From contig AP017991.1 of NCBI GenBank assembly GCA_003609755.1, forward strand, positions 372,001 through 436,000: a stretch of DNA of 64,000 nucleotides, read 5' to 3'. The stretch's first letter is position 1. Each line of letters opens with the position of its first letter. The DNA comes from Planktothrix agardhii NIES-204. GTDB taxonomy: Bacteria; Cyanobacteriota; Cyanobacteriia; Cyanobacteriales; Microcoleaceae. This document shows positions 39,548-57,751 of this stretch, one piece after another. Made by a program: the position numbers and the translations under genes. The notes under the pieces were generated by a model, which saw only the letters and a program-made list of their open reading frames with translations, was not told the origin of the DNA and did not search any database.

Positions 39548-42313
39548 CTAAATTAAATCAATGCTGAGGCGATAATTAGTCCGGGCACTATCTTGGGGAT
39601 ATACCCGTACATAATAAGTCCCAGGAGCAAGTTGCTGTTGTATAATTTCTGAGGATATTCCCTTCTGATTTGATTGACTGATTAACTCCTGCTCACTGCC
39701 ATATAAATTGATATTGGCATCTTTAAATAGTCCGTCAAGAACTAATACTAAAGTGCCTTTGCGATCTAATTGCAAACGGTAATAGTCGTCGGTGTCTCGA
39801 ATTACCCCTTCGGTAAAACCAATTTGGTCATTTCGACTAATTTCTTGTTTAACTTTACCGAGGTTAACCGCCGTCTTAAAACTATCCCCTGGTTTGTCAC
39901 CCCCGGTGTCGTTGTCGTTATCTGTAATTTTGCCTATAGCGCTTTTATCTCCCAAGTCGGCATTTTTGGGTTTACTGAGGTTGAGGAAGAAGGTTTCATT
40001 ATCTTCGTCGAGGGTGTCGCCCAGGATGGGAACAATGATAGTTTTTTGGGTTTGGTTGGGTTGAAAGGTGAGTTTACCGTTAGTGCGTTGATAGTCTTCC
40101 CCTACCTTAGCGGTGCCGTCGCTGGTGGCGTAACTGACTTCAACTTTTTGATTAACTTTGGTATTAAGACTGACAGTGAATTTCGCTTGCTTTTTGCCGT
40201 CGTCACCTTCTATGATTTGGGTATCTTTGATAGAAATTTTGGCTAAGTCATCATTAGTAATACTTCCTATTGCCTGTTTCTTTCCGAGTTGGGCATTTTG
40301 GGGTTTACTCAGGAGCAACTTAAAGGTTTCATTCGCTTCTAGTTTGGTATCCCCAAAAACAGGAACATTGATGGTTTTGCGGGTTTCACCCGGTTTAAAG
40401 GTGAGTTTACCGTTGGTGCGTTGATAGTCTTCCCCTGCCTTAGCGGTGTCGTTGGTGGTGGCGTAGTTGACGGTTACGGTTTGGGTTCTGGGGGTATTAA
40501 GACTAACGGTGAATTTCGCTTGCTTTTTGCCGTTGTCACCTTCTATGATTTGGGTATCTTTGATAGAAATTTGGGCGATATTGGGAGTGGTGTTTTTGTA
40601 CAGTTTCGAGATGTAGTTGTATGAATTATCCTCACCCGTCAACAGCAAGTCGGGTTTACCGTCCCCATTGTAGTCAGCCCAGGCTACGGAACTCCAGCCA
40701 ACACCCGGAAGGGAAACACTGGTATCTTCGGTGAAACCACTGCCTGTGTTTTTGTACAGTTTTGAGATCTTGTTGGATATGGTTTCTGAACTATAACTAT
40801 CGAAACCCGTCAACAGGAAGTCGGGTTTACCGTCCCCATTGTAGTCAGCCCAGGCTACGTAACTGCTGATAACACCAGGAAGGGAAACACTGGTATCTTC
40901 GGTGAAACCACTGCCTGTGTTTTTGTACAGTTTCGAGATGTAGTAGCCTGAATTACCATCGTAACCCGTCAACAGCAAGTCGGGTTTACCGTCTCCATTG
41001 TAGTCAGCCCAGGCTACGGAACTGTAGCCAACACCGGGAAGGGAAATAGAGGTATCTTCGCTGAAACCATTGCCTGTGTTTTTGTACAGTTTTGAGATGG
41101 GGTTATTTGAATTATCTTTACCCGTCAACAGGAAGTCTTGTTTACCGTCCCCATTGTAGTCAGCCCAGGCTACGGAACTCCGGCCAACACCCGGAAGGGA
41201 AAGACTGGTATCTTCAATGAAACCACTGCCTGTGTTTTTGTACAGTTTTGAGATCTTGTTGGATATGGTTTCTGAACTATAACTATCGAAACCCGTTAAG
41301 AGGAAGTCTGGTTTACCGTCCCCATTGTAGTCAGCCCAGGCTACGGAACTGCTGCTAACACCAGGAAGGGAAACACTGGTATCTTCAATGAAACCACTAC
41401 CTGTATTTTTGTACAGTTTCGAGATGTAGCCTGAATTACCATCGTAACCCGTTAAGAGGAAGTCTGGTTTACCGTCCCCATTGTAGTCAGCCCAGGCTAC
41501 AGAACTGCCGCTAACACCCGGAAGGGAAAGACTGGTATCTTCAATGAAACCACTGCCTGTGTTTTTGTACAATCTCGAGATGTCGTTATTTGAATTATCT
41601 TTACCAGTCAACAGGAAGTCTGGTTTACCGTCTCCATTGTAGTCAGCCCAGACTACGGAACCGTAGTAAACACCCGGAAGGGAAATACTGGTATCTTCGG
41701 TAAAGGATGGCTCCGATGCTTCGAGTATGACCGTTTGATCCTCAAGAGTAACTACCACCTGATCGGTTTCTGAGCGCAAACGGGCTATTTCAGAGGCACT
41801 CAACCCATCCCCTTGAACCAATGCCGCCAATAACTCGCCCTCATCCCCTGGAGTATCGACTTGATTTAACTGAGAGTCTAACCAATGTCCCAACTCTTCG
41901 ATGATTACGTTGACTAGATGGGGAGAGGGTTCGGTGTCGCTGGTAATCACAGTATTAGGATCAATCAAACTATCGGCTAAATAGACTGTACCCGTGAGGG
42001 AGTCAAACCCTCCGACCGCGCCATTCATCAACTCTGCTGAGACCAGGGTGATCTGAGGTAACTCATCGCTAACAGGTAAAGCATCAATGAGTGTTCTCGC
42101 CAATTCGATATCCGTTGACTGGCCAAACACCGTTTGCAGATCGGTGGCCAAGGTCGGGGAAGCGATAAATTCCGTTAACTTATCCTCAACCAGAGTCAGG
42201 GCCTCCTCAATTATTCCTGCTGCCCTCAAAGGTTCGACAGATAGATTCCCGATCAATATTATCGGTAAATTTTCGCTGAATGGAAGATTGAAAGCTTTCG
42301 GGTTGTTTTCCAT
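39548..42313 (-). CDS. Giant repeat protein A: zincin-like head, seven FG-GAP/VCBS repeats, two Calx-beta, one PPC-like domain
   Basis: 921 residues. Residues 1-205 form a domain with VNVIIEELGHWLDSQLNQVDTPGDEG; it resembles a zinc-protease HExxH site in which the first His is Glu, so catalysis is doubtful. Seven repeats of SxSLPGVxxSSVAWADYNGDGKPDFLLTG follow (about 205-580), FG-GAP/VCBS blades with DxNxDGxxD calcium loops that should make a beta-propeller. Two Calx-beta modules (about 585-800; ISIKDTQIIEGD...GEDYQRTNGKLTF) and one PPC-like domain (about 810-921) end in NYRLSIDLI. There is no signal peptide and no transmembrane helix. It is probably extracellular, calcium-binding and adhesive. 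A tandem paralogue lies upstream. Confidence 0.88.
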   Translation of the reverse strand: MENNPKAFNLPFSENLPIILIGNLSVEPLRAAGIIEEALTLVEDKLTEFIASPTLATDLQTVFGQSTDIELARTLIDALPVSDELPQITLVSAELMNGAVGGFDSLTGTVYLADSLIDPNTVITSDTEPSPHLVNVIIEELGHWLDSQLNQVDTPGDEGELLAALVQGDGLSASEIARLRSETDQVVVTLEDQTVILEASEPSFTEDTSISLPGVYYGSVVWADYNGDGKPDFLLTGKDNSNNDISRLYKNTGSGFIEDTSLSLPGVSGSSVAWADYNGDGKPDFLLTGYDGNSGYISKLYKNTGSGFIEDTSVSLPGVSSSSVAWADYNGDGKPDFLLTGFDSYSSETISNKISKLYKNTGSGFIEDTSLSLPGVGRSSVAWADYNGDGKQDFLLTGKDNSNNPISKLYKNTGNGFSEDTSISLPGVGYSSVAWADYNGDGKPDLLLTGYDGNSGYYISKLYKNTGSGFTEDTSVSLPGVISSYVAWADYNGDGKPDFLLTGFDSYSSETISNKISKLYKNTGSGFTEDTSVSLPGVGWSSVAWADYNGDGKPDLLLTGEDNSYNYISKLYKNTTPNIAQISIKDTQIIEGDNGKKQAKFTVSLNTPRTQTVTVNYATTNDTAKAGEDYQRTNGKLTFKPGETRKTINVPVFGDTKLEANETFKLLLSKPQNAQLGKKQAIGSITNDDLAKISIKDTQIIEGDDGKKQAKFTVSLNTKVNQKVEVSYATSDGTAKVGEDYQRTNGKLTFQPNQTQKTIIVPILGDTLDEDNETFFLNLSKPKNADLGDKSAIGKITDNDNDTGGDKPGDSFKTAVNLGKVKQEISRNDQIGFTEGVIRDTDDYYRLQLDRKGTLVLVLDGLFKDANINLYGSEQELISQSNQKGISSEIIQQQLAPGTYYVRVYPQDSARTNYRLSIDLI

Positions 42314-42370
42314 GGTTTTAATCCTTGTCTGATAGACCTAGTTTTTCAAGAAATGTTAATCAAGTTCAAT

Positions 42371-42436
42371 AGAAATTGGGTTTCTGCTATTACTGTTTCT
42401 AGCTAATAGAAAGATTGATTCAGAAACAGGGTTTCT
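42371..42436. repeat. Two degenerate AGAAAC-GGGTTTCT palindromes between the paralogues
   Basis: AGAAATTGGGTTTCT (42371-42385) and AGAAACAGGGTTTCT (42422-42436), 51 bp apart, fill the 134-bp gap between giant proteins A and B. The spacing matches the 50-bp period at 39302. Confidence 0.75.
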
Positions 42437-42447
42437 AACTATCCCAG

Positions 42448-45400
42448 TCAACTGAAATCAACGGTGAGGCGGTAATTAGTGTAGGTTTTAACTTTGGGAT
42501 ATACCTTTACATAGTATATCCCAGGATCAAGTTGATATTCTATAATTTCTGGGTTTGTCCCATCGTTTATCCCTTCAGTAATTAACTCCTGCTCACTGCC
42601 ATATAACTTGATATCGGCATCTTTAGATAGTTTCTGAAGGGTTAATAATAAAGTGCCTTTTCGATCTAATTGGAAACGGTAATAGTCGTCGGTGTCCCGA
42701 TAGCTTCCCCCTTCAAGAAAACCAATTTGATCATCTCGAATAATTTCTTGTTTAACTTTACCGAGGTTAACCGCCGTCTCAAAACGATCCCCTGGTTTGT
42801 CACCCCCTGTGTCGTTATCTGTAATCTTGCCTATAGCGCGTTTATCTCCCAAGTCAGCATTTTTGGGTTTACTGAGGTTGAGGAAGAAGGTTTCATTATC
42901 TTCGTCGAGGGTGTCGCCCAGGATGGGAACAATGATAGTTTTTTGGGTTTGGTTGGGTTGAAAGGTGAGTTTACCGTTGGTGCGTTGATAGTCTTCCCCT
43001 ACCTTAGCGGTGCCGTCGCTAGTGGCGTAACTGACTTCAACTTTTTGATTAACTTTGGTATTAAGACTAACGGTGAATTTGGCTTGCTTTTTGCCGTCGT
43101 CACCTTCTATGATTTGGGTATCTTTGATCGAGATTTTGGCTAAGTCATCATTAGTAATACTTCCTATTGCCTGTTTCTTTCCAAGTTGGGCATTTTGGGG
43201 TTTACTGAGGAGCAGCTTAAAGGTTTCATTCCCTTCTAGTTTGGTATCCCCAAAAACAGGAACATTGATGGTTTTGCTGGTTTCACCGGGTTTAAAGGTG
43301 AGTTTACCGTTGGTGCGTTGATAGTCTTCCCCTACCTTAGCGGTGTCGTCGCTAGTGGCGTAACTGACTTCAACTTTTTGATTAACTTTGGTATTAAGAC
43401 TAACGGTGAATTTGGCTTGCTTTTTGCCGTCGTCACCTTCTATGATTTGGGTATCTTTGATCGAGATTTTGGCTAAGTCATCATTAGTAATACTTCCTAT
43501 TGCCTGTTTCTTTCCAAGTTGGGCATTTTGGGGTTTACTGAGGAGCAGCTTAAAGGTTTCATTCCCTTCTAGTTTGGTATCCCCAAAAACAGGAACATTG
43601 ATGGTTTTGCTGGTTTCACCGGGTTTAAAGGTGAGTTTACCGTTGGTGCGTTGATAGTCTTCCCCTACCTTAGCGGTGTCGTCGCTGGTGGCGTAACTGA
43701 CTTCAACTTTTTGATTAACTTTGGTATTAAGACTAACGGTGAATTTGGCTTGCTTTTTGCCGTCGTCACCTTCTATGATTTGGGTATCTTTGATAGAAAT
43801 TTTGGCTAAGTCATCATTAGTAATACTTCCTATTGCCTGTTTCTTTCCGAGTTGGGCATTTTGGGGTTGACTGAGGAGCAGCTTAAAGGTTTCTTTCGCT
43901 TCTAGTTTGGTATCCCCAAAAACAGGAACATTGATGGTTTTGCTGGTTTCACCGGGTTTAAAGGTGAGTTTACCGTTGGTGCGTTGATAGTCTTCCCCTG
44001 CCTTAGCGGTGTCGTTGGTGGTGGCGTAGTTGACGGTTACGGTTTGGGTGCTGGGGGTATTAAGACTAACGGTGAATTTGGCCAGCTTTTTGCCGTTGTC
44101 GCCTTCTATGATTTGGGTATCTTTGATAGAAATTTGAGCGATATTGGGAGTGGTGTTTTTGTACAGTTTCGAGATGTAGTTGTATGAATTATCGTAACCC
44201 GTCAACAGCAAGTCTGGTTTACCGTCCCCATTGTAGTCAGCCCAGGCTACGGAACTGTAGCCAACACCCGGAAGGGAAACACTGGTATCTTCAATGAAAC
44301 CACTGCCTGTGTTTTTGTACAGTTTTGAGATGTAGTTGCCTGAATTAGAATTATCCCTACCCGTCAACAGGAAGTCTTTTTTACCGTCCCCATTGTAGTC
44401 AGCCCAGGCTACGGAACTGCTGCTAACACCCGGAAGGGAAACACTGGTATCTTCAATGAAACCAAAGCCTGTGTTTATGTACAGTTTCGAGATGTAGCCT
44501 GAATAATCAGCGAAACCCGTCAACAGCAAGTCTGGTTTACCGTCTCCGCTGTAGTCAGTCCACGCTACGGAACCATCGGCAACACCAGGAAGTGAAACAC
44601 TGGTATCTTCAACTTCAATGAAACCACTGCCTGTGTTTATGTACAGTTTCGAGATGGTGCCTGAACCATCCCAACCCGTCAACAGGAAGTCTGGTTTACC
44701 GTCCCCATTGTAGTCAGCCCAGGCTACGGAACTGCCTCTAACACCCGGAAGGGAAATACTGGTATCTTCGCTAAAACCACTGCCTGTGTTTTTGTACAGT
44801 TTCGAGATGTTGTTGCCTAAATTAGCCTCACCCGTCTCACCCGTCAACAGCAAGTCTGGTTTACCGTCCCCATTGTAGTCAGCCCAGGCTACGGAACTGT
44901 AGCCAACACCAGGAAGGGAAATACTGGTATCTTCGGTGAAACCACTGCCTGTGTTTTTGTACAGTTTCGAGATGTAGTTATTTGAATTATCCCTACCCGT
45001 CAACAGGAAGTCTGGTTTACCGTCCCCATTGTAGTCAGCCCAGGCTACGGAACTGAGGTAAACACCAGGAAGGGAAACACTGCTATCTTCAATGAAACTG
45101 AAACCACTGCCTGTGTTTTTGTACAGTTTCGAGATGCAGTTCCCTGAATTATTGAAACCCGTCAACAGGAAGTCTTTTTTACCGTCCCCATTGTAGTCAG
45201 CCCAGGCTACGGAACCCCAGTAAACACCCGGAAGGTAAATACTATATTCGGTAAAGGATGGCCCCGATGCTTCGAGTATGACCGTTTGATCCTCAAGGGT
45301 AACTACCACCTGATCGGTTTCTGAGCGCAAACGGGCTATTTCAGAGGTACTTAACCCATCCCCTTGAACCAATGCCGCCAACCACTCGCCCTCATCTCCT

Positions 45401-45864
45401 GGAGTATCGACTTCATTTAAATGAGAGTCTAACCAATGTCCCAATTCTTCGATGATTACGTTGACTAGATGGGGAGATGGTTGGGTGTCGCTGGTAATCA
45501 CAGAATTAGGATCAATCAAACTATCGGCTAAATACACCGTACCCGTCAGGGAGTCAAACCCACCGACCGCACCATTCATCAAATCTGCTGACACCAGGGT
45601 GATCTGAGGTAACTCATCCCGGGCAGGCAAAGCATCGAGGAGTGTTCTCGCCCATGGGATATCCGTTGACTGGCCAAACACCGTTTGCAGATCGGTGGCA
45701 AAGGTTGGGGAAGCGATAAATTCCGTTAACTTATCCTCAACCAGAGTTAGCGCCTCCTCCATTATTCCTGCTGCCCTCAAAGGTTCGACAGATAGATTCC
45801 CGATCAATATTATCGGTAAATTTTGGCTGAATGGAAGATTGAAAGCTTTCTGGTTGTTTTCCAC
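42448..45864 (-). CDS. Giant repeat protein B: paralogue of A with four Calx-beta modules
   Basis: 1138 residues from a GTG (the paralogue uses ATG at the same place). Residues 1-200 are over 85 percent like protein A by eye, including IIEELGHWLDSHLN. Seven FG-GAP/VCBS repeats (about 205-575) are followed by four Calx-beta modules of 111 residues (about 580-1020) and a PPC-like domain ending NYRLTVDFS. The length difference from A (217 residues) is almost exactly two Calx-beta modules. Modules two to four repeat at 333 bp with near-identical DNA, a sign of recent expansion. There is no signal peptide. Role as for A: probable extracellular calcium-binding adhesin or matrix protein. Confidence 0.88.
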   Translation of the reverse strand: MENNQKAFNLPFSQNLPIILIGNLSVEPLRAAGIMEEALTLVEDKLTEFIASPTFATDLQTVFGQSTDIPWARTLLDALPARDELPQITLVSADLMNGAVGGFDSLTGTVYLADSLIDPNSVITSDTQPSPHLVNVIIEELGHWLDSHLNEVDTPGDEGEWLAALVQGDGLSTSEIARLRSETDQVVVTLEDQTVILEASGPSFTEYSIYLPGVYWGSVAWADYNGDGKKDFLLTGFNNSGNCISKLYKNTGSGFSFIEDSSVSLPGVYLSSVAWADYNGDGKPDFLLTGRDNSNNYISKLYKNTGSGFTEDTSISLPGVGYSSVAWADYNGDGKPDLLLTGETGEANLGNNISKLYKNTGSGFSEDTSISLPGVRGSSVAWADYNGDGKPDFLLTGWDGSGTISKLYINTGSGFIEVEDTSVSLPGVADGSVAWTDYSGDGKPDLLLTGFADYSGYISKLYINTGFGFIEDTSVSLPGVSSSSVAWADYNGDGKKDFLLTGRDNSNSGNYISKLYKNTGSGFIEDTSVSLPGVGYSSVAWADYNGDGKPDLLLTGYDNSYNYISKLYKNTTPNIAQISIKDTQIIEGDNGKKLAKFTVSLNTPSTQTVTVNYATTNDTAKAGEDYQRTNGKLTFKPGETSKTINVPVFGDTKLEAKETFKLLLSQPQNAQLGKKQAIGSITNDDLAKISIKDTQIIEGDDGKKQAKFTVSLNTKVNQKVEVSYATSDDTAKVGEDYQRTNGKLTFKPGETSKTINVPVFGDTKLEGNETFKLLLSKPQNAQLGKKQAIGSITNDDLAKISIKDTQIIEGDDGKKQAKFTVSLNTKVNQKVEVSYATSDDTAKVGEDYQRTNGKLTFKPGETSKTINVPVFGDTKLEGNETFKLLLSKPQNAQLGKKQAIGSITNDDLAKISIKDTQIIEGDDGKKQAKFTVSLNTKVNQKVEVSYATSDGTAKVGEDYQRTNGKLTFQPNQTQKTIIVPILGDTLDEDNETFFLNLSKPKNADLGDKRAIGKITDNDTGGDKPGDRFETAVNLGKVKQEIIRDDQIGFLEGGSYRDTDDYYRFQLDRKGTLLLTLQKLSKDADIKLYGSEQELITEGINDGTNPEIIEYQLDPGIYYVKVYPKVKTYTNYRLTVDFS
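43021..43740 (-). repeat. 333-bp tandem DNA repeat encoding Calx-beta modules
   Basis: The segment starting AGTGGCGTAACTGACTTCAA at 43021 recurs at 43354 and again at 43687 (first base changed), an exact 333-bp period. At least 267 bp (43055-43321 and 43388-43654) appear identical between successive copies. The repeat keeps the frame, so gain or loss adds or removes one 111-residue module. Confidence 0.9.
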
Positions 45865-46518: not shown

Positions 46519-49083
46519 ATGCCAGACGACAGGATTCAGGATGCTACAGTTCTAGGTGTCATTGGCACAGAACCAAATCGTGTTAACGAAAAAATTGGTT
46601 TTCGAGAAAATGGCAAAATCGATAGCAACGATTACTTCAAATTTACGATCGCAGAGGAAAGCGATTTTAACTTAACGTTGGATGGACTGGATAAAGATGC
46701 CAATGTTGAAATTATCGACAGTGATGGCAAAACCGTTTTATTCAAAGGGGTTAACCCCGGAACAAAGCCAGAAAACATTGATACTGACCTAGAGGCCGGT
46801 GACTACTATGTCCGGGTATTGCCAAAAGGAAGAAGTATAGCGACAGATTATACCCTGACCATGAGTGCCGCACCCAAAGGCGGGCCAGCAGGTGATCCCC
46901 CCGACGAGGCACCGGGTCTGAAGATTTCTGCTCAGGATTTAGTCAATGGGTTTACCTATAACGATGGCATTGGTTTTACCGAGAATAAACAACGGGACGT
47001 TAAAGATTTCTTTACGTTTTCCCTAGATAAAGATAGTGAAATTAATCTCACTCTAGATCAACTAACGGCTGATGCGAATATTCAACTGTTAGAACTGGAG
47101 AAAAATGGCAAAACCACCAAGTTGATCGACTCGGTAAATAAGGGAAGAGATGATGAGGCGATCGCTGCGGTTTTACCCAAAGGAAATTATGTTGTTCAGA
47201 TCTCACCCCAAGGGGCAGCTAAAACCAATTATTTGTTCAATTTGAAAGCCGATGAGGTTGTTAAAGATCCGAAATTACCTGGTTTAGAAGTTGGTGATTT
47301 AATCGAGAAAGGATTCTTTACGATTGATAATATTGGTCAAGGAGTCGGCACACAACGGAACCAAAAAGACTTCTACACCTTTAATCTAAGTAAAGATGCT
47401 TCTTTCTACTTAGATGTTGAACAACTCAAAGCTGATGCCAATGTAGCAGTTTATGATTATGAGGCAGACAGTAAAACTTTAGGTGGGTTACTGTTTAGTT
47501 CCAAGAACACAGGCAATGCCAATGAAACTATCAGCGACTATTTAGAAAAAGGAGATTACGCGGTTGTTGTTTCACCTCAAGGACGAGCCAAAACAGAATA
47601 TTATCTGGAATTAGATACCGCCCTCAATTCTGATGATATTCCCACCCTAGAAACAGCCGAGAAATTAGGAGAATTAGTTGACAAGCCAACAGTCCGTAGT
47701 GATGATGTGGGCAAGTTATTAGATGGGCGTTTCCGAGATCAATCTGACTGGTATGAATTTACCGTCGGTGAAGAGAAAAATGTCAATATTACCTTAGACA
47801 GTCTCAGAGCTAATCTTGACGTCAAAGTCTATGACACTGAAGGAAAAGAGGTTTACAAGTCTAACAATAAAGGACAGAAAGACGAAACAATCAATGAAAC
47901 CTTAGATCCGGGAACTTATTATGTAGAAGTTGTACCGTTTGGCACGGCTATTAGTCCCTATCGTTTGTCGTTAAATGCCGTAGCTCCAGTTAAACCTGAA
48001 GAGATCTTTGAATTAGGGGATATTACGACGGCGAAAAAATTCGTCGAAAGTGATCAGGTTGGACGCGAAGGAAGCGGTGTTCGCAATGAAGCGGATATTT
48101 ATAACTTCAGTGTCTCGTCTAATACGAAAATTAGTGCGGCTTTAGATGGGATGAGTCAAGATGCCAATTTGGAACTGTATGACAGCGCCGATAATTTGAT
48201 TGTCAAGAGTGAAAATACTGGCAAGATCGGTGAACTGCTAGGAACGACATTAGCACCTGGTGATTACTACGCGAAAGTTATTCCTGCGGGGAATGCAGAA
48301 ACCGACTATCGCTTGGAAATCAAAGGCAGCGAAGTCAAATCTAAGGATGAAACCTTTAAAGTCGATAATCTGGGTACTAAACAATACAAGAAATCTGAGG
48401 ATATTGGCAAGACAGAAGGTGGCGCTCCCAATAGCAACGACTACTATAACTTTAGTCTGGACGCTGAGAGTAATTTTACCTTGAACTTGGATACCATGAC
48501 CGCAGATGCCAATGTGCGGGTACTCGATGGTGAAGGTAAGACGGTATTGAGTTCCTTTAACACAGGAAGTTCCCCAGAAAAAATTGTTGATGTGTTAGCC
48601 GCTGGGGATTATAAAGTTCATGTGTTTGCGGCGGGAAGTGCCAAGACGAACTATTTCCTGAGTATGGGTGCAGAAGCAACCACTGATCCAGTAGATCCCG
48701 TAGATCCCGTAGATCCCGTAGATCCAATTACTGGCAGTGATCCAAACGGAACCTTAGAAACGGCAACAGATTTAGGACAATTGCCTGATTTAATTACTCA
48801 ACCGGACACGAAGATTGGGTTCACAGAAAACAAGGTTCGGGATCTCAGTGATTACTACAAAATCGGTGTTGGGGCGGCAGGTGATGTCACCATTGTCCTA
48901 GATAAATTAAAAGCTAACGCGGATTTAGCACTTTTAGACAGTAGTGGTGCTGTGCTTTATTCATCGGCAAAAACGGGAATGGCTACCGAGACCATTAGTG
49001 CAGCTTTAGACGCCGGGGATTATTACCTGAAAGTTGCGACCGTTGGTACAGCCCAAACCGGCTACAGCTTATCAATTTTCTAA
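46519..49083 (+). CDS. Giant repeat protein C: array of seven PPC-like domains
   Basis: 854 residues from the ATG at 46519, which TTAAGGAGA precedes by 8 bases; a longer frame from 46486 overlaps this ribosome binding site. Seven domains of about 105-125 residues each carry: IGFxENGxRDxxDYYxF; LTLDGLxxDANVxLxDxxG; then an LxAGDYYVRVLPxGxAxTxYxL end. This is the bacterial pre-peptidase C-terminal (PPC) pattern, normally a single appendage to a protease; here there is no peptidase. A DPVDPVDPVDPVDP linker precedes the last domain, and the protein ends YSLSIF. There is no signal peptide. Likely secreted, with a binding or structural role. Confidence 0.85.
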   Translation: MPDDRIQDATVLGVIGTEPNRVNEKIGFRENGKIDSNDYFKFTIAEESDFNLTLDGLDKDANVEIIDSDGKTVLFKGVNPGTKPENIDTDLEAGDYYVRVLPKGRSIATDYTLTMSAAPKGGPAGDPPDEAPGLKISAQDLVNGFTYNDGIGFTENKQRDVKDFFTFSLDKDSEINLTLDQLTADANIQLLELEKNGKTTKLIDSVNKGRDDEAIAAVLPKGNYVVQISPQGAAKTNYLFNLKADEVVKDPKLPGLEVGDLIEKGFFTIDNIGQGVGTQRNQKDFYTFNLSKDASFYLDVEQLKADANVAVYDYEADSKTLGGLLFSSKNTGNANETISDYLEKGDYAVVVSPQGRAKTEYYLELDTALNSDDIPTLETAEKLGELVDKPTVRSDDVGKLLDGRFRDQSDWYEFTVGEEKNVNITLDSLRANLDVKVYDTEGKEVYKSNNKGQKDETINETLDPGTYYVEVVPFGTAISPYRLSLNAVAPVKPEEIFELGDITTAKKFVESDQVGREGSGVRNEADIYNFSVSSNTKISAALDGMSQDANLELYDSADNLIVKSENTGKIGELLGTTLAPGDYYAKVIPAGNAETDYRLEIKGSEVKSKDETFKVDNLGTKQYKKSEDIGKTEGGAPNSNDYYNFSLDAESNFTLNLDTMTADANVRVLDGEGKTVLSSFNTGSSPEKIVDVLAAGDYKVHVFAAGSAKTNYFLSMGAEATTDPVDPVDPVDPVDPITGSDPNGTLETATDLGQLPDLITQPDTKIGFTENKVRDLSDYYKIGVGAAGDVTIVLDKLKANADLALLDSSGAVLYSSAKTGMATETISAALDAGDYYLKVATVGTAQTGYSLSIF
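48685..48726 (+). repeat. 9-bp tandem repeat encoding the DPV linker
   Basis: GATCCCGTA units repeat between GATCCA at 48685 and GATCCA at 48726, four and two-thirds copies. They encode DPVDPVDPVDPVDP, an acidic extended linker before the last PPC domain. Perfect short repeats in frame can change linker length by slippage. Confidence 0.9.
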
Positions 49084-49272: not shown

Positions 49273-52200
49273 ATGGCAGAAGTTTTTGGTCAAGCAACGA
49301 ATACTTGGGGAACACCGAATAAGGGTTCTTTCTCAGATCCTATTTTTAAAGGTGTTGGAACAGATACATTTAATTGGGCAGAATCTGTTGATCCGGCATT
49401 ACCAACAAATGGATTATCAATTTCTAGCCTCCCGTTTGATGTCTCATTCAATAAGCCCTTTGAAGTGGGGATGCTCTCTTACTTCAATGGTTCAATTTGG
49501 ATGGATACTGCTGTTGAATCTGTCCCCTTACAAATTCAATTGGATTTAGATAGTCCGACGGATCAAACTAAGAATTTTAAGTTTGATCTGAAACTAGAAA
49601 CAGTGGCGGACTGTTCCCCTGATCCAGAAGACTGGAAGGATTTTGTTTATTTTCCCGATGTTTTACCGAATGAAACCTTTGATTACGGGGGCAAAAAATA
49701 TACCCTGGAAGTCTTAGGATTTAGTAAAGATGGTGGGACGACTTTAGAAAATCGCTTCCGGGTGCAGGAACAAGAAGCTGATTCGGCAGGTTTGTATGCA
49801 AAAATTACTGAAGTTAAGAAACAACTACCAGATGGAGATAAGAACGCCCAAACCGACGGGGCGACACTGATCGGGGATATTAAGAAAAAAGCCTGGGTAG
49901 AAACTGAGGATATTGGGTATACTGAAGGCGGTGTTCGTGACGTTTCTGATCTTTACAAATTCTCGATCAAAGAGCAGTGTGAAGTCAGTCTTGTTCTCGA
50001 TCAACTTGCACAAAATGCCGATCTAGAAATTTTAGATAGTGATGGCACAACGGTACTGTTTCAGTCTACCGAAACAGGCGCTCGGACTAAAGAATTGATT
50101 ACGGAGATTTTGGAAGCAGGTGATTATTACGTCCGGGTTTATACCCCAGGAAGCCAGAAAACTAAATATCGCCTGAGTGTGAAAGGCGAAAGTATTACGG
50201 AGGAAAAAGATAGTTTAAAAACAGCAAAAGATCTGGGGGTTCTGAGTGCACAACAGGTCACGGAACTCGATAAAATTGGCTTTGGCGCAGGAAAAAGCCG
50301 TGATGCTCAGGACTTTTATAAGTTTAGTGTCACCGAAGACAAAAACGATGTTCAAATCATCCTTGATGGTTTGAAAGCGGATGCCAATATCGAACTCTAT
50401 GATAGTGATGGAAAGACGAAATTAGGAACGTCTGATAACAAAAATCGGAATGCGGATAAAATTGTTGCTGAATTGGATAAAGGGGAATACTATATTAAAG
50501 TTATTCCTCAAGGAAATGCCAAAACTGATTACCAATTGACGGTTAATTCTTTAGCGATTAAAGATGAACCGGATGATAAAGCACCAGGTGTCAATTTAGG
50601 AACTTTAACTCCGGCTAATGCCATTACTAAAGCTGATAAAATTGGGGCAAAAGTTGGGAGCGGGCGGGATCAAAAAGATTACTATACCTTCGATGTACCT
50701 GATGACACCAATATCTACTTAACTCTGGGTGGGTTAAAAGCTAATGCTAAAGTGCAACTGTTCGATGAGTCAGGAGACGAGATCGACACTTCAACTGGCA
50801 AAGCGGGAGTAGCAATAGAACAGACCTTAGAGAAGGGAACCTACACGGTGCTGGTCACTCCTGATGGACAATCAAGTACGGATTATCAGCTAAAAATCAG
50901 TGCCGAAGCTCCCTTCGTTGATGATTATCCAATCCCTAAAGAAGCATTAGATTTAGGGGCTGTGAGTGGCAAGAAAGTCTTTAATAATGAGATTGGCAAA
51001 ACCCAAGGTCGTGCCGGACGGGATGAGAAAGACTGGATTAAATTTGATGTCACCAAAGAGAGTTGGGTTGATATCAACTTGGATAAGTTACGGCAGAATG
51101 CTGATTTGGAATTGTATGACGGTGATGGCAAAACCCTTTTGAATTATTCACGGGAAACCGGACAACGGGCTGCCGAAACAATTCAGGATGTGCTTGAACC
51201 CGGAACTTATTATCTGCAAGTTGTTCCTAAAGTTAGCGGACGCACGGGTTATCAGTTAAGTGTAGATATTAGCGATCTCGGTAACAAAGTTCAGAAATTT
51301 GAGGTTGGCGATCTCAATACCGTAGGAACTTACAGTAAACCTGAATCCATTGGTTTAGGTGCGGCGGATCGTCGTAACGAACTTGACCAATACTCCTTCA
51401 GCTTAGATGAAAAAACTGATGTAGTGATTAACCTCGATGATCTCACTGCTGATGCTAATATCCGCCTGAAAACAAGTCAAGGAGTTCTGCTCTTTGACTC
51501 TACCAACTCCGGCGACAGCAGTGAAGAAATTTCGGAAAACCTTGATGCTGGGGACTATGTTTTAGAAGTCTTTCCCTTTGGTAATGCCAAGGCCAACTAC
51601 AACCTAAGCATGAGTGCGGCGGGTGGTGGAGTCGATGATGACAGTCCCGCTAGTCTGGCAACCGATATGACGAATATCCTGAATGCGGATAAACTTTATT
51701 CGACTAAAGATAATATTGGTTCTAGTATTGGGTCAACTTCCCGCGATCAGAAAGATTACTATAGCTTTACCCTAACCGGGGAAGAAGCCGTTAGCATCAA
51801 ACTGAGTGGTTTAAGTGGGAACGCTAATGTGGAATTGTTGGATAGTGACGAAAGCCCAATTCGTGCTTCCCGAAATCCGGGTAAGGCCGCAGAATCAATT
51901 AGCGAAACCTTAGAAGCCGGTAAATATTATGTTCTGGTGACTCCCCAAGGTAGCGATCGCACGGATTACGATTTGAGCGTCTCTTTAGGGGGTAGCGGAG
52001 GCAAAGATTCCGATGGTACGTTCCCAACTGCTACCAATATCGGTGGTTTAGGAGATTATGAAGCCTCCGACTCCATTGGTCTACAAGGGGATGGTTACCG
52101 GGATATCAATGACTATCGCAAATTTACCATCAGTGAAAAGAGCAACTTCAGTCTCAACCTGACGAACCTGAAGCAAAACGCCGATGTGGAGTTGTATGAT

Positions 52201-52677
52201 GCCGATCAAGTATTGCTGAAAAGTTCTCGTAAGAGTGGTCAAGCCGATGAGTCCATTAGCGATGTTCTGACCAAGGGTGACTACTACGTCCGAGTGTTGC
52301 CAAAAGGTAGCGTTGGTAGCAGCTACGACTTAAACATGAGCGCTTCTCCTGTTGGCCAAGATTCCTCCGTTGATTTGGGGACGTTGGGTGCTGATCCTCT
52401 CACCAATAAAGGGTTGAGTGGGGAAACTGGCGATCCAGTTGATGAATTTACTTTCATTGTGGGGAGTGGTGGTTTTGTCGATATTAACCTCACGGGTCTG
52501 AAAGCGAATGCCAACCTGGAGGTTTACAGCAAAGCGGGTGTACTAATTGGCAGTTCCGCTAATGCCGGAAACAGCAATGAAAATATCAACTCTTTCCTGT
52601 CACCGGATACCTACTTAGTTAAAGTTCTCGCCAGTGGTGGTCTGACTCCCTATAACTTAGAGGTTGTTGCTGGATAA
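49273..52677 (+). CDS. Giant repeat protein D: choice-of-anchor-K-like head and eight PPC-like domains
   Basis: 1134 residues. Residues 1-190 differ from the other proteins: FGQATNTWGTPNKGSFSDPIFKGVGTDTFNWAES, FNGSIWMDTAVESVPLQIQLDLDSPT and FDYGGKKYTLEVLGF. This resembles the choice-of-anchor K domain found at the head of some cyanobacterial surface proteins. Eight PPC-like domains follow, each with (D/R)-N-A-D-(L/V)-x-L-x-D-x-D-G and GDYYVxVxPxGxxxTxYxLxV. It has only one or two Cys. There is no signal peptide and no membrane helix. It ends PYNLEVVAG. An AAGGAAATCAAGGTC sequence precedes the ATG. Likely secreted together with C and E. Confidence 0.83.
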   Translation: MAEVFGQATNTWGTPNKGSFSDPIFKGVGTDTFNWAESVDPALPTNGLSISSLPFDVSFNKPFEVGMLSYFNGSIWMDTAVESVPLQIQLDLDSPTDQTKNFKFDLKLETVADCSPDPEDWKDFVYFPDVLPNETFDYGGKKYTLEVLGFSKDGGTTLENRFRVQEQEADSAGLYAKITEVKKQLPDGDKNAQTDGATLIGDIKKKAWVETEDIGYTEGGVRDVSDLYKFSIKEQCEVSLVLDQLAQNADLEILDSDGTTVLFQSTETGARTKELITEILEAGDYYVRVYTPGSQKTKYRLSVKGESITEEKDSLKTAKDLGVLSAQQVTELDKIGFGAGKSRDAQDFYKFSVTEDKNDVQIILDGLKADANIELYDSDGKTKLGTSDNKNRNADKIVAELDKGEYYIKVIPQGNAKTDYQLTVNSLAIKDEPDDKAPGVNLGTLTPANAITKADKIGAKVGSGRDQKDYYTFDVPDDTNIYLTLGGLKANAKVQLFDESGDEIDTSTGKAGVAIEQTLEKGTYTVLVTPDGQSSTDYQLKISAEAPFVDDYPIPKEALDLGAVSGKKVFNNEIGKTQGRAGRDEKDWIKFDVTKESWVDINLDKLRQNADLELYDGDGKTLLNYSRETGQRAAETIQDVLEPGTYYLQVVPKVSGRTGYQLSVDISDLGNKVQKFEVGDLNTVGTYSKPESIGLGAADRRNELDQYSFSLDEKTDVVINLDDLTADANIRLKTSQGVLLFDSTNSGDSSEEISENLDAGDYVLEVFPFGNAKANYNLSMSAAGGGVDDDSPASLATDMTNILNADKLYSTKDNIGSSIGSTSRDQKDYYSFTLTGEEAVSIKLSGLSGNANVELLDSDESPIRASRNPGKAAESISETLEAGKYYVLVTPQGSDRTDYDLSVSLGGSGGKDSDGTFPTATNIGGLGDYEASDSIGLQGDGYRDINDYRKFTISEKSNFSLNLTNLKQNADVELYDADQVLLKSSRKSGQADESISDVLTKGDYYVRVLPKGSVGSSYDLNMSASPVGQDSSVDLGTLGADPLTNKGLSGETGDPVDEFTFIVGSGGFVDINLTGLKANANLEVYSKAGVLIGSSANAGNSNENINSFLSPDTYLVKVLASGGLTPYNLEVVAG

Positions 52678-52804: not shown

Positions 52805-55800
52805 ATGTTAATTGAATCACCAGACAGCAGTGTTTTATTTCCCTTAGAAGCTACCCCAGATCAGTTTAATCCCTACAATATTCTGATTGGCACTGCGGAA
52901 GCGAATGATGCCTTACCTCTATTATTCCAGGGTCAATATAGGAGTGATAATCCAGACTTAATTTTTGAAAGTTCCGATGTGATTCCTATTAATAAAACTA
53001 CTAATTTAGATGAGGATAATTTAACGGGAGTTGACCCAACACAATTGAAGGAGAATTTAGAAAGCAGTCAAAACCTTGAAATTCAACCCAGGAAAGGAAC
53101 TCAATCTGATACGGGAGGAACAATTAAAACAGCTAAGGATTTAGGAAAACTCAGTAGTAAACCCCTTTCAATCAATGAGAAAGTCGGATATAGAGTTCAG
53201 GGGAAACGGGATGTTAATGATTATTATAAGTTTACAGTCAAAAATCGCTTAAATCAAGTCAATATTTCTTTAGATGGACTCAAAGGCAATGCTAATTTGC
53301 AACTTTTGGGAAGTAATGGGAAAGAGATTATTTCCACATCTACAGAAACCGGAAAAACTAAAGAAAATATCTTTGAATCTTTACCTGCTGGGACTTATTA
53401 TCTGCGGGTATATCCCCAAGGTGCTGACAGTACCGCTTATCACCTCAGTTTAGATGCAGATTCGATTAGTGATGCAGATGGAACTGCTAAACTGGCTCAA
53501 GATTTTAAACTACCTGGTAAAATATTTACGGCAAAGGATGATATTGGTTTTGAGTTAGGTGGGGTAAGAGATCAGAAAGATTACTATGAATTAAATCTAA
53601 CAAAAGATAGCGAAGTTAGCATTAGTTTAGATGGGTTGACTCAAAATGCTAATATTAAGCTATTAGGTAAAGATGGTAAAAATGTTGAGTTTAGTTCCTC
53701 AAACTTAGGGAAGGAACGGGAAGAAATCACTACAACTTTAGATAAAGGCAAATACTACGTTTTAGTAGAACCTTATCAAACAGAACGTACTTCATATAAT
53801 TTGAGTGTCGCTGCTGATGCTCAGATTATAGATAAAGATGGTAGTTTACCGGGTAAAAAACTCAATATAGGTAAAAGCGTCACTGATAGTATTGGGGTCA
53901 AAACCGGAAAACGTATTGACCAAGATGATTATTACAATTTTGAGTTGAAGAAAGAAAGTGAAATCACCCTAGACTTACAAAAATTGACCCAAAATGCTGA
54001 TATTGAACTGTATGGAGAAGATGGAACTACTCAAATTTTAGCCTCGAATAATTCAGGGAATAAAGCTGAAACAATTAGTAGTATTCTTGACCCTGGAAAA
54101 TATTATGTTCGGATTAAAAATGTCGGAACAAATAACACAGAATATCGATTGTCTTTAACTGCAAATACTAAAATTAGCGAGAAAGATGATCAACTTCCAG
54201 GAACGAATTTAGGGGATATTACAAAACAGGAAGTTAATAAATCAAGTAAAATTGGTTTTCAAACTGGAAAAAATATTCGAGATACGGATGACTACTATCA
54301 GTTTAAAGTAGCAGAAAGTAGCAATGTTAATATTAACTTAGATGGTTTAAATGCAAATGCTAAATTAGAGTTACTGGGAACAGATGGTCAACGTCTTGGT
54401 AGTTCTAATAAAAAAGGAACAACAGCAGAGACAATTAACAAAAAATTAGAACCAGGAACTTATTACGTCCATATTGAACCGAATAGTGGCAAAGATAGCA
54501 CTGCATATAAGCTCAAGATTACAGCCGATCAACCCCTTGATGATTATGAATCTTTGAAAACCGCTAAAAAATTAGGGGCATTAAACCAACAAGATCCGAT
54601 TACAGAAACGAATGCTATTGGGTTCACCACGAGCGGTTTACGCGATAAAAATGACTATTATAATTTTAGTTTGACAGAACCGAATGAACTGACGGTGGAT
54701 CTGGAGAATCTCAAAGCTGATGCTAACGTCAGGTTATTGGATGCTAGTGGTAAATTAGTTGATGAAAATATTCAGAAAGGAACTAAACCTGAAACAATTT
54801 ATAAAGAACTGAAAGCGGGAGATTATTACTTACAAGTTTTACCCGTTGGCACTGCTAAAACAAACTATAACCTTATCGTTGGCATTCAACAAAAAAGTGA
54901 CTTATCGGGAGTCTTTCAATTAGCATCAACAACTGCTAATCCAGAGGATAAAGTTGATGTTAAATATACCGTTAGCAATACGGATGTGAGTGCAGCCGAT
55001 GGGTTCAGAGTGGGATTTTATTTATCAGCAGATAGCGCTATTAATCCTAAAAAAGATATCCTATTAGATTCCCAAACAATTAAATCCTTGGCAGGTTATA
55101 CCCTCACCAGTGAATTGACTCAAAAACTGACTTTACCAAATGTTAATAATGACTTTTGGAAACAAGGGAAAACCAAAGATTTCTATTTAGGAATGGTGGT
55201 TGACGATCTCAATGCAATTGGAGAAAGTAATGAAAAAAATAACCTCACCAAGCAACTATTATCGATCGCACCTGCTCCGGCTGATAATGCTGGGAATAGC
55301 CGTGATCAAGCCAAGGATTTAGGGGGAATTGGCAGTGCGCCTCAAACCTATTCTGACTGGTTAGGAAGCCACTACAATATTGCTACTGACTCTGACGATT
55401 ATTATAAATTACAACTGACTCAAAAAAGCAATCTGAAACTGGATTTAACTGGGTTACAATCCAATGCTGATGTTTATTTACTCGATAGTCAAGGTTATGA
55501 ACTTAAACAAGCAGTAAAATTAGGGAATAAATCTGAATCGATTGCTGAGAATTTATTACCTGGGGATTATTATGTTCGGGTGAATAAATCAGATAGCGAT
55601 CGCACAACCTATAATTTAAAAGTTGCGGCATCACCCCTAGAATATCCTGTTCCTGTTATTGCTGGCAATACTTGGGAAACTGCCTACAATATGACTAACA
55701 TCAGTAGTACCCCAACAACATACTCTGAATTTGTAGGCAATAAATACGGAATTCCTGAAGAACTTGAGGATTACTACAAACTTCAAATTGACAAAGATAG

Positions 55801-57751
55801 TAGTCTCTCCCTGAAGTTAACAGGAATGAGTGCTAACGCGAATCTGTTCTTGTACAACAGTGATAAAGGTCTGGTTGAATCCTCGGAAACTTTGAAGACT
55901 GCTGGTGAACAAATTCTCAGCAATTTAACCCCAGGGACTTACTATATTAAAGTTGCAGGTGTGGGTAACATTCAAACCACTTATAACTTAGAAGTTGCGA
56001 CTACAACACTGCCCAATAATGGTGCTGGGAATAATCCAGATAATTCTAAGGAATTAGGTGCTATTACAACACCACAAACGGTCAGTGATTGGGTTGGAGA
56101 TATCGATAATTCGGATTACTATCAATTATCTCTGCCTCAAACCAGTACCTTAGAACTGAATCTGACTAATACCAAGACTAACTTAAGTCTCTATGACAAT
56201 AAGGGTAATCCAATTAACTCCGACGACCAAACCGGGAAACTGGTTAGCAATTTACAAGCGGGAACTTATTACGTCGAAGTTGCTCCAGACTATAACGTTA
56301 GTAGTGCCAATTATGACTTGCAGGTTTCAGCAACTCCGCGAGTTGATACAGCAGGTAATACCATCAATACCGCACAAGATATCGGCGCTTTAGGTGCGAC
56401 TGCGGTAACAAAAAATGATTGGGTTGGGGATATTGATACCGATGATTATTACAAATTCTCCCTCGCAGGAAATAGCACCCTCAATCTCAATTTAAGTGGA
56501 TTAACTCAAAATGCTGACCTGTACTTGTACAACAGTGAGGGTTCTGAAATTGGTTATTCCTATCAAGAGGGTAAAACGGATGAAAATATCCTGACAAATC
56601 TCACAGCAGGAACCTATTATGTACTTGTTAATAGTGATTATTATGGTGGCAACACAACTTATAATTTAAAATTGTCGGCAACAGCAATTTCTGATAGTGC
56701 CGGAAATGACATGACCACAGCACAAGATATCGGCACTTTAGGTGCGACTGCGGTAACAAAAAATGATTGGGTTGGGGATATTGACACCTACGATTATTAC
56801 AAATTCTCCCTGACTGGAAATAGCACCCTCAATCTCAATTTAAGTGGATTAACTCAGAATGCTGACCTGTACTTGTACAACAGTGCGAGTTCTGAAATTG
56901 GTTATTCCTATCAAGAGGGTAAAACGGATGAAAATATCCTGACAAATCTCACAGCAGGAACCTATTATGTACTTGTTAATAGTGATTATTATGGTGGCAA
57001 CACAACTTATAATTTAGGAGTTTCTGCCACCGCCTTAACCTATTCTCCTGCTAATAAAGTCGGTAATACTCTCAGTCAAAACCTCAATATTGGGGCTTTA
57101 GGAACAACTCAAACCTTTAATGATTTTGTGGGTAATCCCCATGGAATAGAACAGGATGAAAATGATTTCTATACTTTCTCAATTCCCAGTGCGAGTACCA
57201 TTAATTTAAAACTAACTGGTTTAACGGCAAACGCTGATCTCTACCTCTATGATAGCAATGATTATCAGATCGGTGAATCTGCGGCTTTCTCGAATGTAGA
57301 TGAAACCATTAGCAAAATCCTAAATCCAGGTACATACCGCATCAAAGTTAGCAGCAACAATGGTGCTAATACCGGTTACAATTTACAAGCAACTGCATCT
57401 GCATTACCGAATAATGGTGCCGGTGAAAGTTTTGATAAAGCGTTACCTTTAGGTATTCTGAGCAGTGCTATTAGTTATGATGATTGGGTGGGTTACTCGA
57501 TTGATTCCAGTGATTACTACCAATTCCAACTCGCTCAAAACCGTGTCGTTAATGTTAACTTAAGCAATGTCAGTGACTCAATTAGTGTTAACATTTACGA
57601 TAATTCTGGTGACTATATTACATCCGATCTTGTTGGTGCCGGAGAAACTAAAACTTTAACAACAGAAACACTGCCACCGGGTCTGTATTATGTTACGGTC
57701 GATGATTACTATACCGATAAAGGTGCTTTCTATCGCCTATCCATTTCTTAA
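52805..57751 (+). CDS. Giant repeat protein E: twelve PPC-like domains with a CARDB-like insert
   Basis: 1648 residues from the ATG at 52805, which GGAG precedes by 7 bases; an in-frame TTG at 52793 overlaps that site. An acidic head of about 100 residues has no signal peptide. Five PPC-like domains follow (about 110-695). Then comes a CARDB-like beta-sandwich (about 695-825; DVKYTVSNTDVSAADGFRVGFYLSAD and DLNAIGESNEKNN). Seven more PPC-like domains follow, in which DWVGDxDxxDYYxF replaces the IGF start. Domains nine and ten repeat at 348 bp with almost the same DNA. The protein ends FYRLSIS. Aromatic and Asp/Asn content is high and Cys is absent or nearly so. Probably a fibrous extracellular protein. 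Confidence 0.85.
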   Translation: MLIESPDSSVLFPLEATPDQFNPYNILIGTAEANDALPLLFQGQYRSDNPDLIFESSDVIPINKTTNLDEDNLTGVDPTQLKENLESSQNLEIQPRKGTQSDTGGTIKTAKDLGKLSSKPLSINEKVGYRVQGKRDVNDYYKFTVKNRLNQVNISLDGLKGNANLQLLGSNGKEIISTSTETGKTKENIFESLPAGTYYLRVYPQGADSTAYHLSLDADSISDADGTAKLAQDFKLPGKIFTAKDDIGFELGGVRDQKDYYELNLTKDSEVSISLDGLTQNANIKLLGKDGKNVEFSSSNLGKEREEITTTLDKGKYYVLVEPYQTERTSYNLSVAADAQIIDKDGSLPGKKLNIGKSVTDSIGVKTGKRIDQDDYYNFELKKESEITLDLQKLTQNADIELYGEDGTTQILASNNSGNKAETISSILDPGKYYVRIKNVGTNNTEYRLSLTANTKISEKDDQLPGTNLGDITKQEVNKSSKIGFQTGKNIRDTDDYYQFKVAESSNVNINLDGLNANAKLELLGTDGQRLGSSNKKGTTAETINKKLEPGTYYVHIEPNSGKDSTAYKLKITADQPLDDYESLKTAKKLGALNQQDPITETNAIGFTTSGLRDKNDYYNFSLTEPNELTVDLENLKADANVRLLDASGKLVDENIQKGTKPETIYKELKAGDYYLQVLPVGTAKTNYNLIVGIQQKSDLSGVFQLASTTANPEDKVDVKYTVSNTDVSAADGFRVGFYLSADSAINPKKDILLDSQTIKSLAGYTLTSELTQKLTLPNVNNDFWKQGKTKDFYLGMVVDDLNAIGESNEKNNLTKQLLSIAPAPADNAGNSRDQAKDLGGIGSAPQTYSDWLGSHYNIATDSDDYYKLQLTQKSNLKLDLTGLQSNADVYLLDSQGYELKQAVKLGNKSESIAENLLPGDYYVRVNKSDSDRTTYNLKVAASPLEYPVPVIAGNTWETAYNMTNISSTPTTYSEFVGNKYGIPEELEDYYKLQIDKDSSLSLKLTGMSANANLFLYNSDKGLVESSETLKTAGEQILSNLTPGTYYIKVAGVGNIQTTYNLEVATTTLPNNGAGNNPDNSKELGAITTPQTVSDWVGDIDNSDYYQLSLPQTSTLELNLTNTKTNLSLYDNKGNPINSDDQTGKLVSNLQAGTYYVEVAPDYNVSSANYDLQVSATPRVDTAGNTINTAQDIGALGATAVTKNDWVGDIDTDDYYKFSLAGNSTLNLNLSGLTQNADLYLYNSEGSEIGYSYQEGKTDENILTNLTAGTYYVLVNSDYYGGNTTYNLKLSATAISDSAGNDMTTAQDIGTLGATAVTKNDWVGDIDTYDYYKFSLTGNSTLNLNLSGLTQNADLYLYNSASSEIGYSYQEGKTDENILTNLTAGTYYVLVNSDYYGGNTTYNLGVSATALTYSPANKVGNTLSQNLNIGALGTTQTFNDFVGNPHGIEQDENDFYTFSIPSASTINLKLTGLTANADLYLYDSNDYQIGESAAFSNVDETISKILNPGTYRIKVSSNNGANTGYNLQATASALPNNGAGESFDKALPLGILSSAISYDDWVGYSIDSSDYYQFQLAQNRVVNVNLSNVSDSISVNIYDNSGDYITSDLVGAGETKTLTTETLPPGLYYVTVDDYYTDKGAFYRLSIS
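56372..57020 (+). repeat. 348-bp in-frame duplication inside gene E
   Basis: TGCGGTAACAAAAAATGATT at 56401 recurs at 56749, a period of 348 bp (116 residues). Long blocks such as AATTTAAGTGGATTAACTCA, and the TATCAAGAGGGTAAAACGGA region through the end of the domain, are unchanged. Differences are clustered (GAGGG versus GCGAG, GCAGG versus ACTGG). This is a recent duplication of one PPC-like domain. Confidence 0.9.

What the first reader, a model, noticed from the sequence alone, without database searches (positions are those of the whole stretch)
39548..57751. Divergent cluster of five giant PPC-containing proteins with no peptidase and no export genes
Seen: about 17 kb of coding sequence in five genes. 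Two tandem minus-strand paralogues (VCBS, Calx-beta, PPC) stand back to back with three plus-strand proteins that are almost nothing but PPC-like domains (7, 8 and 12 copies, 29 in the locus). Known: PPC domains are usually single C-terminal appendages of secreted proteases. Inference: this is a dedicated extracellular or surface-layer system, perhaps a matrix, sheath or cell-cell adhesion apparatus, with the propeller proteins as partners of the PPC fibres.
Basis: partly seen in the sequence, partly recalled or inferred. Interest (0 to 1): 0.85.

Follow-up and report, generated by a model that had tools for sequence, protein, structure and literature searches.

The report
Strain-variable island of giant surface proteins
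In a filamentous cyanobacterium, five giant proteins built from repeated binding domains sit on an 18-kilobase DNA island that another genome of the same species lacks, and two of them start with a widespread, unnamed domain shaped like a metal-dependent protease but without its usual active-site motif.

Summary
Five ORFs carry 29 PPC domains (1, 1, 7, 8, 12), with FG-GAP repeats and Calx-beta in the two minus-strand paralogues. Three things were not foreseen.

(1) The five genes are exactly an 18.4-kb presence/absence island. The same-species genome G059 has the two flanks adjacent, and a 52-bp direct repeat bounds the island. P3 orthologues occur in 3 of 58 relatives, each time beside a P4 or P5 homologue: a conserved but patchy neighbourhood. 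The divergent layout was not seen again.

(2) "No peptidase" needs qualifying. P1/P2 begin with a ~200-aa domain found in 92 of 386 sampled cyanobacterial genomes. It models as a zincin-like metalloprotease fold but carries EExGH, not HExxH. Pfam and NCBIfam match it at best weakly.

(3) In relative G017 this head and, mostly, a Calx-beta/PPC tail enclose interchangeable middles: SBBP, RTX, extra Calx-beta or a PPC array. One gene is a natural fusion of P1 head and tail with a P3-like body.

Best reading: exported, probably adhesive, surface or matrix proteins, perhaps through a type I secretion system encoded elsewhere. Export and function are inferred, not shown.

The parts
39380..39431 (+). 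left copy of a 52-bp direct repeat bounding the island
   Evidence: 98% identical to 57799-57850; in G059 the flanks meet at this repeat
39431..39496 (+). second repeat box, left copy (other copy 57970-58035); member of a dispersed repeat family
   Evidence: 94% identical, same orientation; 29 matches to 39297-39502 in the own genome, the query itself included
39548..42313 (-). P1, 921 aa: zincin-like head, 7 FG-GAP repeats, 2 Calx-beta, C-terminal PPC
41699..42313 (-). P1 head domain (residues 1-205) with EELGH in place of HExxH
   Evidence: alignment A2, AlphaFold2 model pLDDT 84.9, pTM 0.85, fold comparison
42448..45864 (-). P2, 1138 aa paralogue: head, 7 FG-GAP repeats, 4 Calx-beta, C-terminal PPC
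   Evidence: Calx-beta 333-bp units about 96% alike
45250..45864 (-). P2 head domain (residues 1-205)
   Evidence: 92% identical to the P1 head
46519..49083 (+). P3, 854 aa from the likely ATG (ORF opens at TTG 46486): 7 PPC domains
   Evidence: orthologues in G014, G017, G020
49273..52677 (+). P4, 1134 aa: choice-of-anchor K domain plus 8 PPC
   Evidence: orthologues in G020 and G017
52805..57751 (+). P5, 1648 aa from the first ATG (ORF opens at TTG 52793): 12 PPC and a CARDB match
   Evidence: orthologues in G014 and G032
57799..57850 (+). right copy of the bounding direct repeat
57970..58035 (+). second repeat box, right copy
38331..39134 (-). left flank: TPM-domain protein, outside the island
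   Evidence: Pfam E 2.9e-6; present in 9 of 10 genus genomes
58061..59962 (-). right flank: protein kinase-GUN4 protein, outside the island
   Evidence: Pfam; a collinear kinase gene, partly shorter, stands next to the TPM gene in the four empty sites

Best explanation
The five genes form a strain-variable island of giant exported proteins that act at or beyond the outer surface of the filament, most likely as calcium-dependent adhesive or matrix components. P3, P4 and P5 are strings of PPC jelly-roll domains (stalks or multivalent binders). P1 and P2 present an FG-GAP propeller between a zincin-like head, probably not catalytic, and a Calx-beta/PPC tail. Export probably uses a type I secretion system encoded elsewhere. 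The island is gained or lost at flanking direct repeats. Shown: architecture, island boundaries and the empty site, the co-occurring neighbourhood, the fusion protein, the absence of HExxH. Inferred: export, calcium dependence, adhesion, lack of catalysis, the mechanism of gain and loss.
For: Domain content typical of exoproteins. One PPC repeat models like collagenase collagen-binding/PPC domains. No Sec-type hydrophobic N-terminus in any of the five by a simple hydropathy window (at most 1.32, against 1.41-2.26 in three controls). A paralogue in the G017 array carries RTX repeats between the same kind of head and tail, and 11 of 57 head-bearing proteins match RTX, a hallmark of type I secretion (general knowledge). 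A C39-ABC transporter, HlyD and an RTX protein lie together in the own genome. The head is joined to Calx-beta in 13, FG-GAP in 11, cadherin in 6 and LysM in 1 of 57 proteins. P3 neighbours a P4 or P5 homologue in 3 of 3 other genomes; fusion of P1 head and tail with a P3-like body in G017. Exact empty site in a same-species genome. dN/dS 0.29 (head, P1 vs P2) and 0.39 (P1 tail vs G004) suggest constraint. Precedent: Anabaena HesF, an adhesion exoprotein without a recognised signal peptide whose secretion depends on the TolC-like HgdD (PMC4390845, passages read).
Against: No proteomic or localisation data. The five proteins have no RTX repeats by Pfam, and no secretion signal was demonstrated; the hydropathy test is crude and P1/P2 (1.32) lie close to the weakest control (1.41). 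The flanking TPM gene is under much stronger constraint (dN/dS 0.07 against 0.39 for the P1 tail in the same pair of genomes). A paper argues that cyanobacterial PPC-calpains are cytosolic because they lack transmembrane helices (PMC9380684, passages read). Most relatives lack P3-P5, and a same-species genome lacks the island, so no essential sheath role. HesF kinship by sequence and calcium binding were not tested.
Confidence: 0.55

Rival explanations
1. The cluster is a secreted hydrolytic or processing system: the EExGH head of P1/P2 is an active metalloenzyme with an unusual ligand set, or a prodomain-like regulator of enzymes, and the PPC arrays bind substrate.
For: Zincin-like fold with EExGH almost invariant (E139 in 68, E140 in 69, H143 in 70 of 70; EExxH in 30 of 30), which looks maintained rather than decaying. 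The head also stands before a subtilase domain in L059 and a calpain domain in L071. PPC domains are frequent on proteases (general knowledge; PMC4356367 and PMC9380684, passages).
Against: No HExxH in the 70 aligned heads or the 30 profile hits; the two sets overlap in part and both lean to close relatives. Most heads are not followed by a peptidase that Pfam sees: S8 in 1 and M23 in 2 of 57 among the 25 of 48 families shown, plus the calpain of L071. P3-P5 show no enzyme domain above cut-off.
Confidence: 0.15
2. A recognition or defence surface: a variable-payload locus that gives a strain its filament identity or shields it against grazers, parasites or phages.
For: Presence/absence within a species; similar heads and tails with interchangeable middles in G017; variation among the 14 blades of P1 and P2 lies, by eye, mainly in two loop stretches.
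Against: No immunity or partner gene was recognised in the island. P1 and P2 blades do not correspond in order, so the dN/dS of 0.86 for the propeller is unreliable.
Confidence: 0.2
3. Cytoplasmic proteins, or a neutral island on the way to loss, without a surface role.
For: P3 absent in all 8 congeners and in G059; broken copies in G017; no signal peptide seen; weaker constraint than the flanking TPM gene.
Against: Five long intact frames; dN/dS below 1 for head and tail; conserved neighbourhood across genera; domain types typical of exoproteins.
Confidence: 0.1

Closest known systems
PPC family (PF04151), including the collagen-binding domains of clostridial collagenases ColG/ColH
   Same: Same domain by HMM and by fold: Foldseek hits to ColG s3b (E 3.7e-6) and a Bacillus collagenase PPC domain (E 5.5e-7).
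   Different: Here they form arrays of 7 to 12 without a catalytic module; collagen binding is not implied.
Zincin metallopeptidases (deuterolysin M35, AsaP1 and others)
   Different: No HExxH: EExGH instead. Foldseek E only 0.04 and 9% identity to 1eb6.
HesF of Anabaena (adhesion exoprotein, HgdD-dependent)
   Different: Kinship not tested; HesF is one protein, here a five-gene island.
RTX / type I secreted giant exoproteins with Calx-beta, FG-GAP and cadherin domains
   Same: Domain repertoire, size, no Sec-type N-terminus.
   Different: No RTX repeats in the five window proteins; the PPC tail stands where RTX usually is.
PPC-bearing cyanobacterial calpains
   Same: Several PPC domains in a cyanobacterial protein (PMC9380684, passages); head, calpain, PPC and RTX co-occur in L071.
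   Different: Calpain catalytic core absent here.

Membership tests
PPC (PF04151) | HMM score above the curated cut-off | tested here: met
   P3-P5 far above the cut-off; P1/P2 24.7 and 25.6 bits in hmmscan (below 25.9) but 31.1 and 28.4 in the genome scan
PPC (PF04151) | beta-sandwich (jelly-roll) fold like ColG CBD | tested here: met
   model pLDDT 92.2; Foldseek TM (query-normalised) 0.71-0.77 for the four best hits, E 5.5e-7 to 9.0e-6; one repeat of P3 modelled, not each protein
FG-GAP propeller and Calx-beta | Pfam matches above cut-off in P1/P2 | tested here: met
   FG-GAP_3 E 2.9e-54 and 5.3e-47; Calx-beta E 2.8e-42 and 1.4e-85
Zincin metallopeptidase | zincin fold | tested here: met
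Zincin metallopeptidase | HExxH catalytic motif | tested here: not met
   0 of 70 and 0 of 30; E139 in 68, E140 in 69 and H143 in 70 of the 70, EExxH in 30 of the 30
Type I secretion substrate | RTX repeats and/or a demonstrated C-terminal signal, no Sec signal peptide | tested here: inconclusive
   no Sec-like N-terminus by a crude hydropathy test; no RTX in the five; RTX in a G017 paralogue
Type IX secretion substrate (suggested by Por_Secre_tail matches) | T9SS core SprA in the genome | tested here: inconclusive
   no match in the own genome, but no control genome rang either
HesF-like adhesion factor | sequence homology to HesF (Alr0267) | not tested
   sequence not fetched
Genomic island (presence/absence locus) | defined ends with an empty site in close relatives | tested here: met
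   G059 (same species), G006, G003, G008 empty; 52-bp direct repeats
Genomic island (presence/absence locus) | own integrase or transposase, as self-mobile islands have | tested here: inconclusive
   the five large ORFs carry none; small ORFs inside the island were not scanned

The most novel reading that the evidence does not exclude
A modular surface-display system in cyanobacteria: a zincin-like EExGH head and a Calx-beta/PPC tail carry interchangeable middle modules (FG-GAP or SBBP propellers, RTX, PPC arrays), kept as strain-variable islands that recombine at flanking repeats and partnered with pure PPC-array proteins, serving filament identity or selective adhesion. The head would be an undescribed, widespread domain in which an ancient protease fold has been turned into a structural or secretion module.
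Probability: 0.2. Interest if true: 0.8.

Novelty: new variant of a known kind. Interest (0 to 1): 0.52.

Why it matters
It gives a testable pair (same species, with and without the island) for asking what giant cyanobacterial exoproteins do. It also points to a recurrent N-terminal domain, found in 92 of 386 sampled cyanobacterial genomes, that no Pfam or NCBIfam model matches in P1 (best Pfam E 0.075; among 70 heads the best E is 3e-4), and whose zincin-like fold without HExxH suggests a protease fold reused as the head of many large proteins. If head and tail are trafficking or assembly modules, they would offer a handle on how cyanobacteria export very large proteins without signal peptides.

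Tried and rejected
A. Type IX secretion, suggested by Por_Secre_tail matches: treated as fold similarity between jelly-roll domains; the SprA test is uninformative because no control rang.

B. Mobile element with its own recombinase: none in the five large ORFs, small ORFs not scanned; recombination at dispersed repeats is preferred.

C. Positive selection on the propeller (dN/dS 0.86): set aside, because P1 and P2 blades do not correspond in order. P3 against G014 gave no dS value.

D. PDB sequence-profile search for the head: nothing significant (best E 0.34, 0.69).

E. Promoter scan of the divergent region: one promoter-like site against 2.4 expected, four terminator-like sites against 0.7; not used.

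F. Literature, PMC full text, ten searches: 'pre-peptidase C-terminal' + cyanobacteria + Calx-beta 0 papers; PPC domain + exoproteome + cyanobacteri 0; [quoted passage not shown] Planktothrix + Calx-beta 1, on Microcystis; cyanobacteri + type I secretion + exoproteome + TolC 5; HesF, mostly unrelated; cyanobacteri + pre-peptidase 4; Planktothrix/island/adhesin terms and Trichodesmium/exoproteome terms, nothing to the point in the ten papers listed by each; Planktothrix + type I secretion 2. None of the titles, abstract starts or passages seen describes this locus; no text search was made for the head domain itself. Of PMC4390845, PMC9380684, PMC4356367 and PMC5647855 I saw passages; of the others only the listings.

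G. Rows dropped: 42 of 122 head-encoding candidates were not kept by the tool; of the 80 loci, 68 entered A2 with P1 and P2 (ten were left off my list and others had short matches); 57 of 80 entered the payload survey (length 330-1720 aa). Of the 80 ORFs, 16 were classed as cut by a contig or locus end.

Full report
Setting. The window is G000:C1:372001-436000 of a 5.08-Mb genome in 5 contigs, 99.99% complete. The first 8 kb of its contig C2 match 13 plasmid records, 11 of them Planktothrix; the best record covers 26% of the query at 99.5%, none covers 80%, and several matches are the insertion sequence ISPlag1. I take the host to be Planktothrix, perhaps P. agardhii; that is inference.

Observation. 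The five ORFs and the 29 PPC domains are real. P1 and P2 are tandem paralogues, 78% identical over 884 aa. Their order is head, seven FG-GAP repeats, two or four Calx-beta, PPC. P3, P4 and P5 are PPC arrays of 7, 8 and 12; P4 begins with a choice-of-anchor K domain and P5 has a CARDB match. Tandem units inside P2 and P5 are about 96% alike in DNA (333-bp and 348-bp units), so repeats expanded recently. A model of one PPC repeat, built on an alignment of the 28 copies listed, has pLDDT 92.2 and matches solved PPC and collagen-binding domains.

PPC elsewhere in the genome. Ten more PPC matches lie at two other loci. One locus (605-630 kb) has a subtilase with FG-GAP and RTX repeats (3921 aa), a 420-aa metallopeptidase-like protein with Calx-beta, an RTX-PPC protein (RTX by eye) and a protein with PPC, RTX and a weak, sub-cut-off metallopeptidase match; the other (1431 kb) has a protease that looks like HtrA with PPC, and a small PPC protein (by eye). 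The FG-GAP repeats of P1 and P2 are about 79-80% identical in DNA to those of that subtilase, so propeller repeats seem to be shared within the genome.

The island. In G059, labelled same species, the window's right flank (62965 down to 57804) is followed directly by the left flank (39431 down to 36381), with the five genes missing. A 52-bp direct repeat, 39380-39431 and 57799-57850, 98% identical, sits at the two ends; its copies start 18,419 bp apart. The repeats belong to a family with 29 matches in the genome, the query included. Of 10 genus genomes: own is filled; G004 (73% complete) has the P1 tail (91% identical) beside the TPM gene on a 3-kb contig; G059, G006, G003 and G008 have both flanks together without the genes; G007, G001 and G002 show the left flank but no alignment beyond it; G005 has no TPM match. 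P3 was found in none of the 8 congeners nor in G059. Insertion and loss cannot be told apart; deletion by recombination between the repeats would explain the empty sites.

Neighbourhood elsewhere. P3 has full-length relatives in 3 of 58 relatives (G014, 50%; G017, 48%; G020, 45%) and, at E 1e-60 or better, matches in 2 of 386 genomes sampled across the phylum, own included. In G017, P3 lies about 140 bp from a P4 orthologue, and on its other side a co-directional run of P1-type genes begins about 590 bp away. In G020 the order is P3, P4 orthologue, Calx-beta/PPC gene without a head that my HMM sees. P5 occurs alone in G032. P4 orthologues were found in G017 and G020 only. The genes around the cluster differ between G014 and G017 (by eye). 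The unit is thus real but patchy, and the divergent arrangement was seen only in the window.

Modules. In G017 seven intact genes share the head; six of the seven end in Calx-beta and PPC, the seventh in PPC only. The middle differs: of four head genes scanned with Pfam one has SBBP, one RTX, one a PPC array and one only Calx-beta. A broken copy has FG-GAP-like repeats by eye; one FG-GAP repeat is seen by my HMM in two G014 genes. One G017 gene has a head matching P1 17-198 (51%), a body matching P3 12-712 (44%) and a tail matching P1 681-921 (55%). This natural fusion is the best evidence that P1-type and P3-type proteins work together. Several copies at the end of the run are broken.

What the head is joined to. 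Of 57 full or partial head proteins: Calx-beta 13, RTX 11, FG-GAP 11, cadherin 6, PPC 3, SBBP 2, M23 2, S8 1, LysM 1 among the 25 of 48 families shown. Individual cases include a calpain (L071) and a subtilase (L059). It looks like a general N-terminal module of large exoprotein-like proteins.

Export. None of the five shows a Sec-like hydrophobic start (window of 17, at most 1.32, against 1.41 to 2.26 in three controls); this is a crude test, and the gap to the weakest control is small. The genome holds a C39-ABC transporter, a HlyD protein above the family cut-off and an RTX protein side by side at 2074-2084 kb, and a second ABC/HlyD pair near 3151-3156 kb. Type I secretion is therefore plausible, not shown.

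Constraint. dN/dS is 0.29 for the head (P1 vs P2) and 0.39 for the P1 tail against G004, but 0.07 for the flanking TPM gene in the same pair of genomes: selection on the island genes is present but weaker.

Function. [quoted passage not shown] I commit to an exported adhesive or matrix role at 0.55. The absence within the species argues for a variable trait rather than an essential sheath component.

Verdict. Observation confirmed; interpretation partly supported. The locus is a new variant of a known kind (modular giant exoproteins). The more general find is the zincin-like head domain without HExxH.

Noticed in passing
G000:C1:605001-635000 (L038, L039): Second repeat-protein locus: 3921-aa subtilase with FG-GAP, Big_5 and RTX repeats, a metallopeptidase-like protein with Calx-beta, and PPC-RTX proteins; its propeller repeats are about 79-80% identical in DNA to those of P1/P2.
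   Followed up: partly
window 1937-1987, 13041-13074, 36116-36145, 36159-36195, 36341-36376: Short tandem heptamer arrays, like the short tandemly repeated sequences known from cyanobacteria (recalled).
   Followed up: no
window 58061-59962: The right-flank kinase-GUN4 protein belongs to a large family: 38 matches in the own genome, 32 to 62 in the nine other genus genomes.
   Followed up: no
G017:C1, 39553-46378 of the joined stretch L031-L033: Broken copies of P1-type genes at the end of the tandem run, beside intact ones.
   Followed up: no
L059 and L071: The head domain stands before a subtilase (L059) and a calpain (L071, with PPC and RTX), which suggests a prodomain-like or trafficking role there.
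   Followed up: no
L048, L052: Candidatus Accumulibacter proteins combine the same head with long PPC arrays (12 and 9 copies by my HMM), outside cyanobacteria.
   Followed up: no
alignment A4 (57 head proteins): Two head proteins match TcdB_toxin_midN and two match a phage tail collar domain.
   Followed up: no
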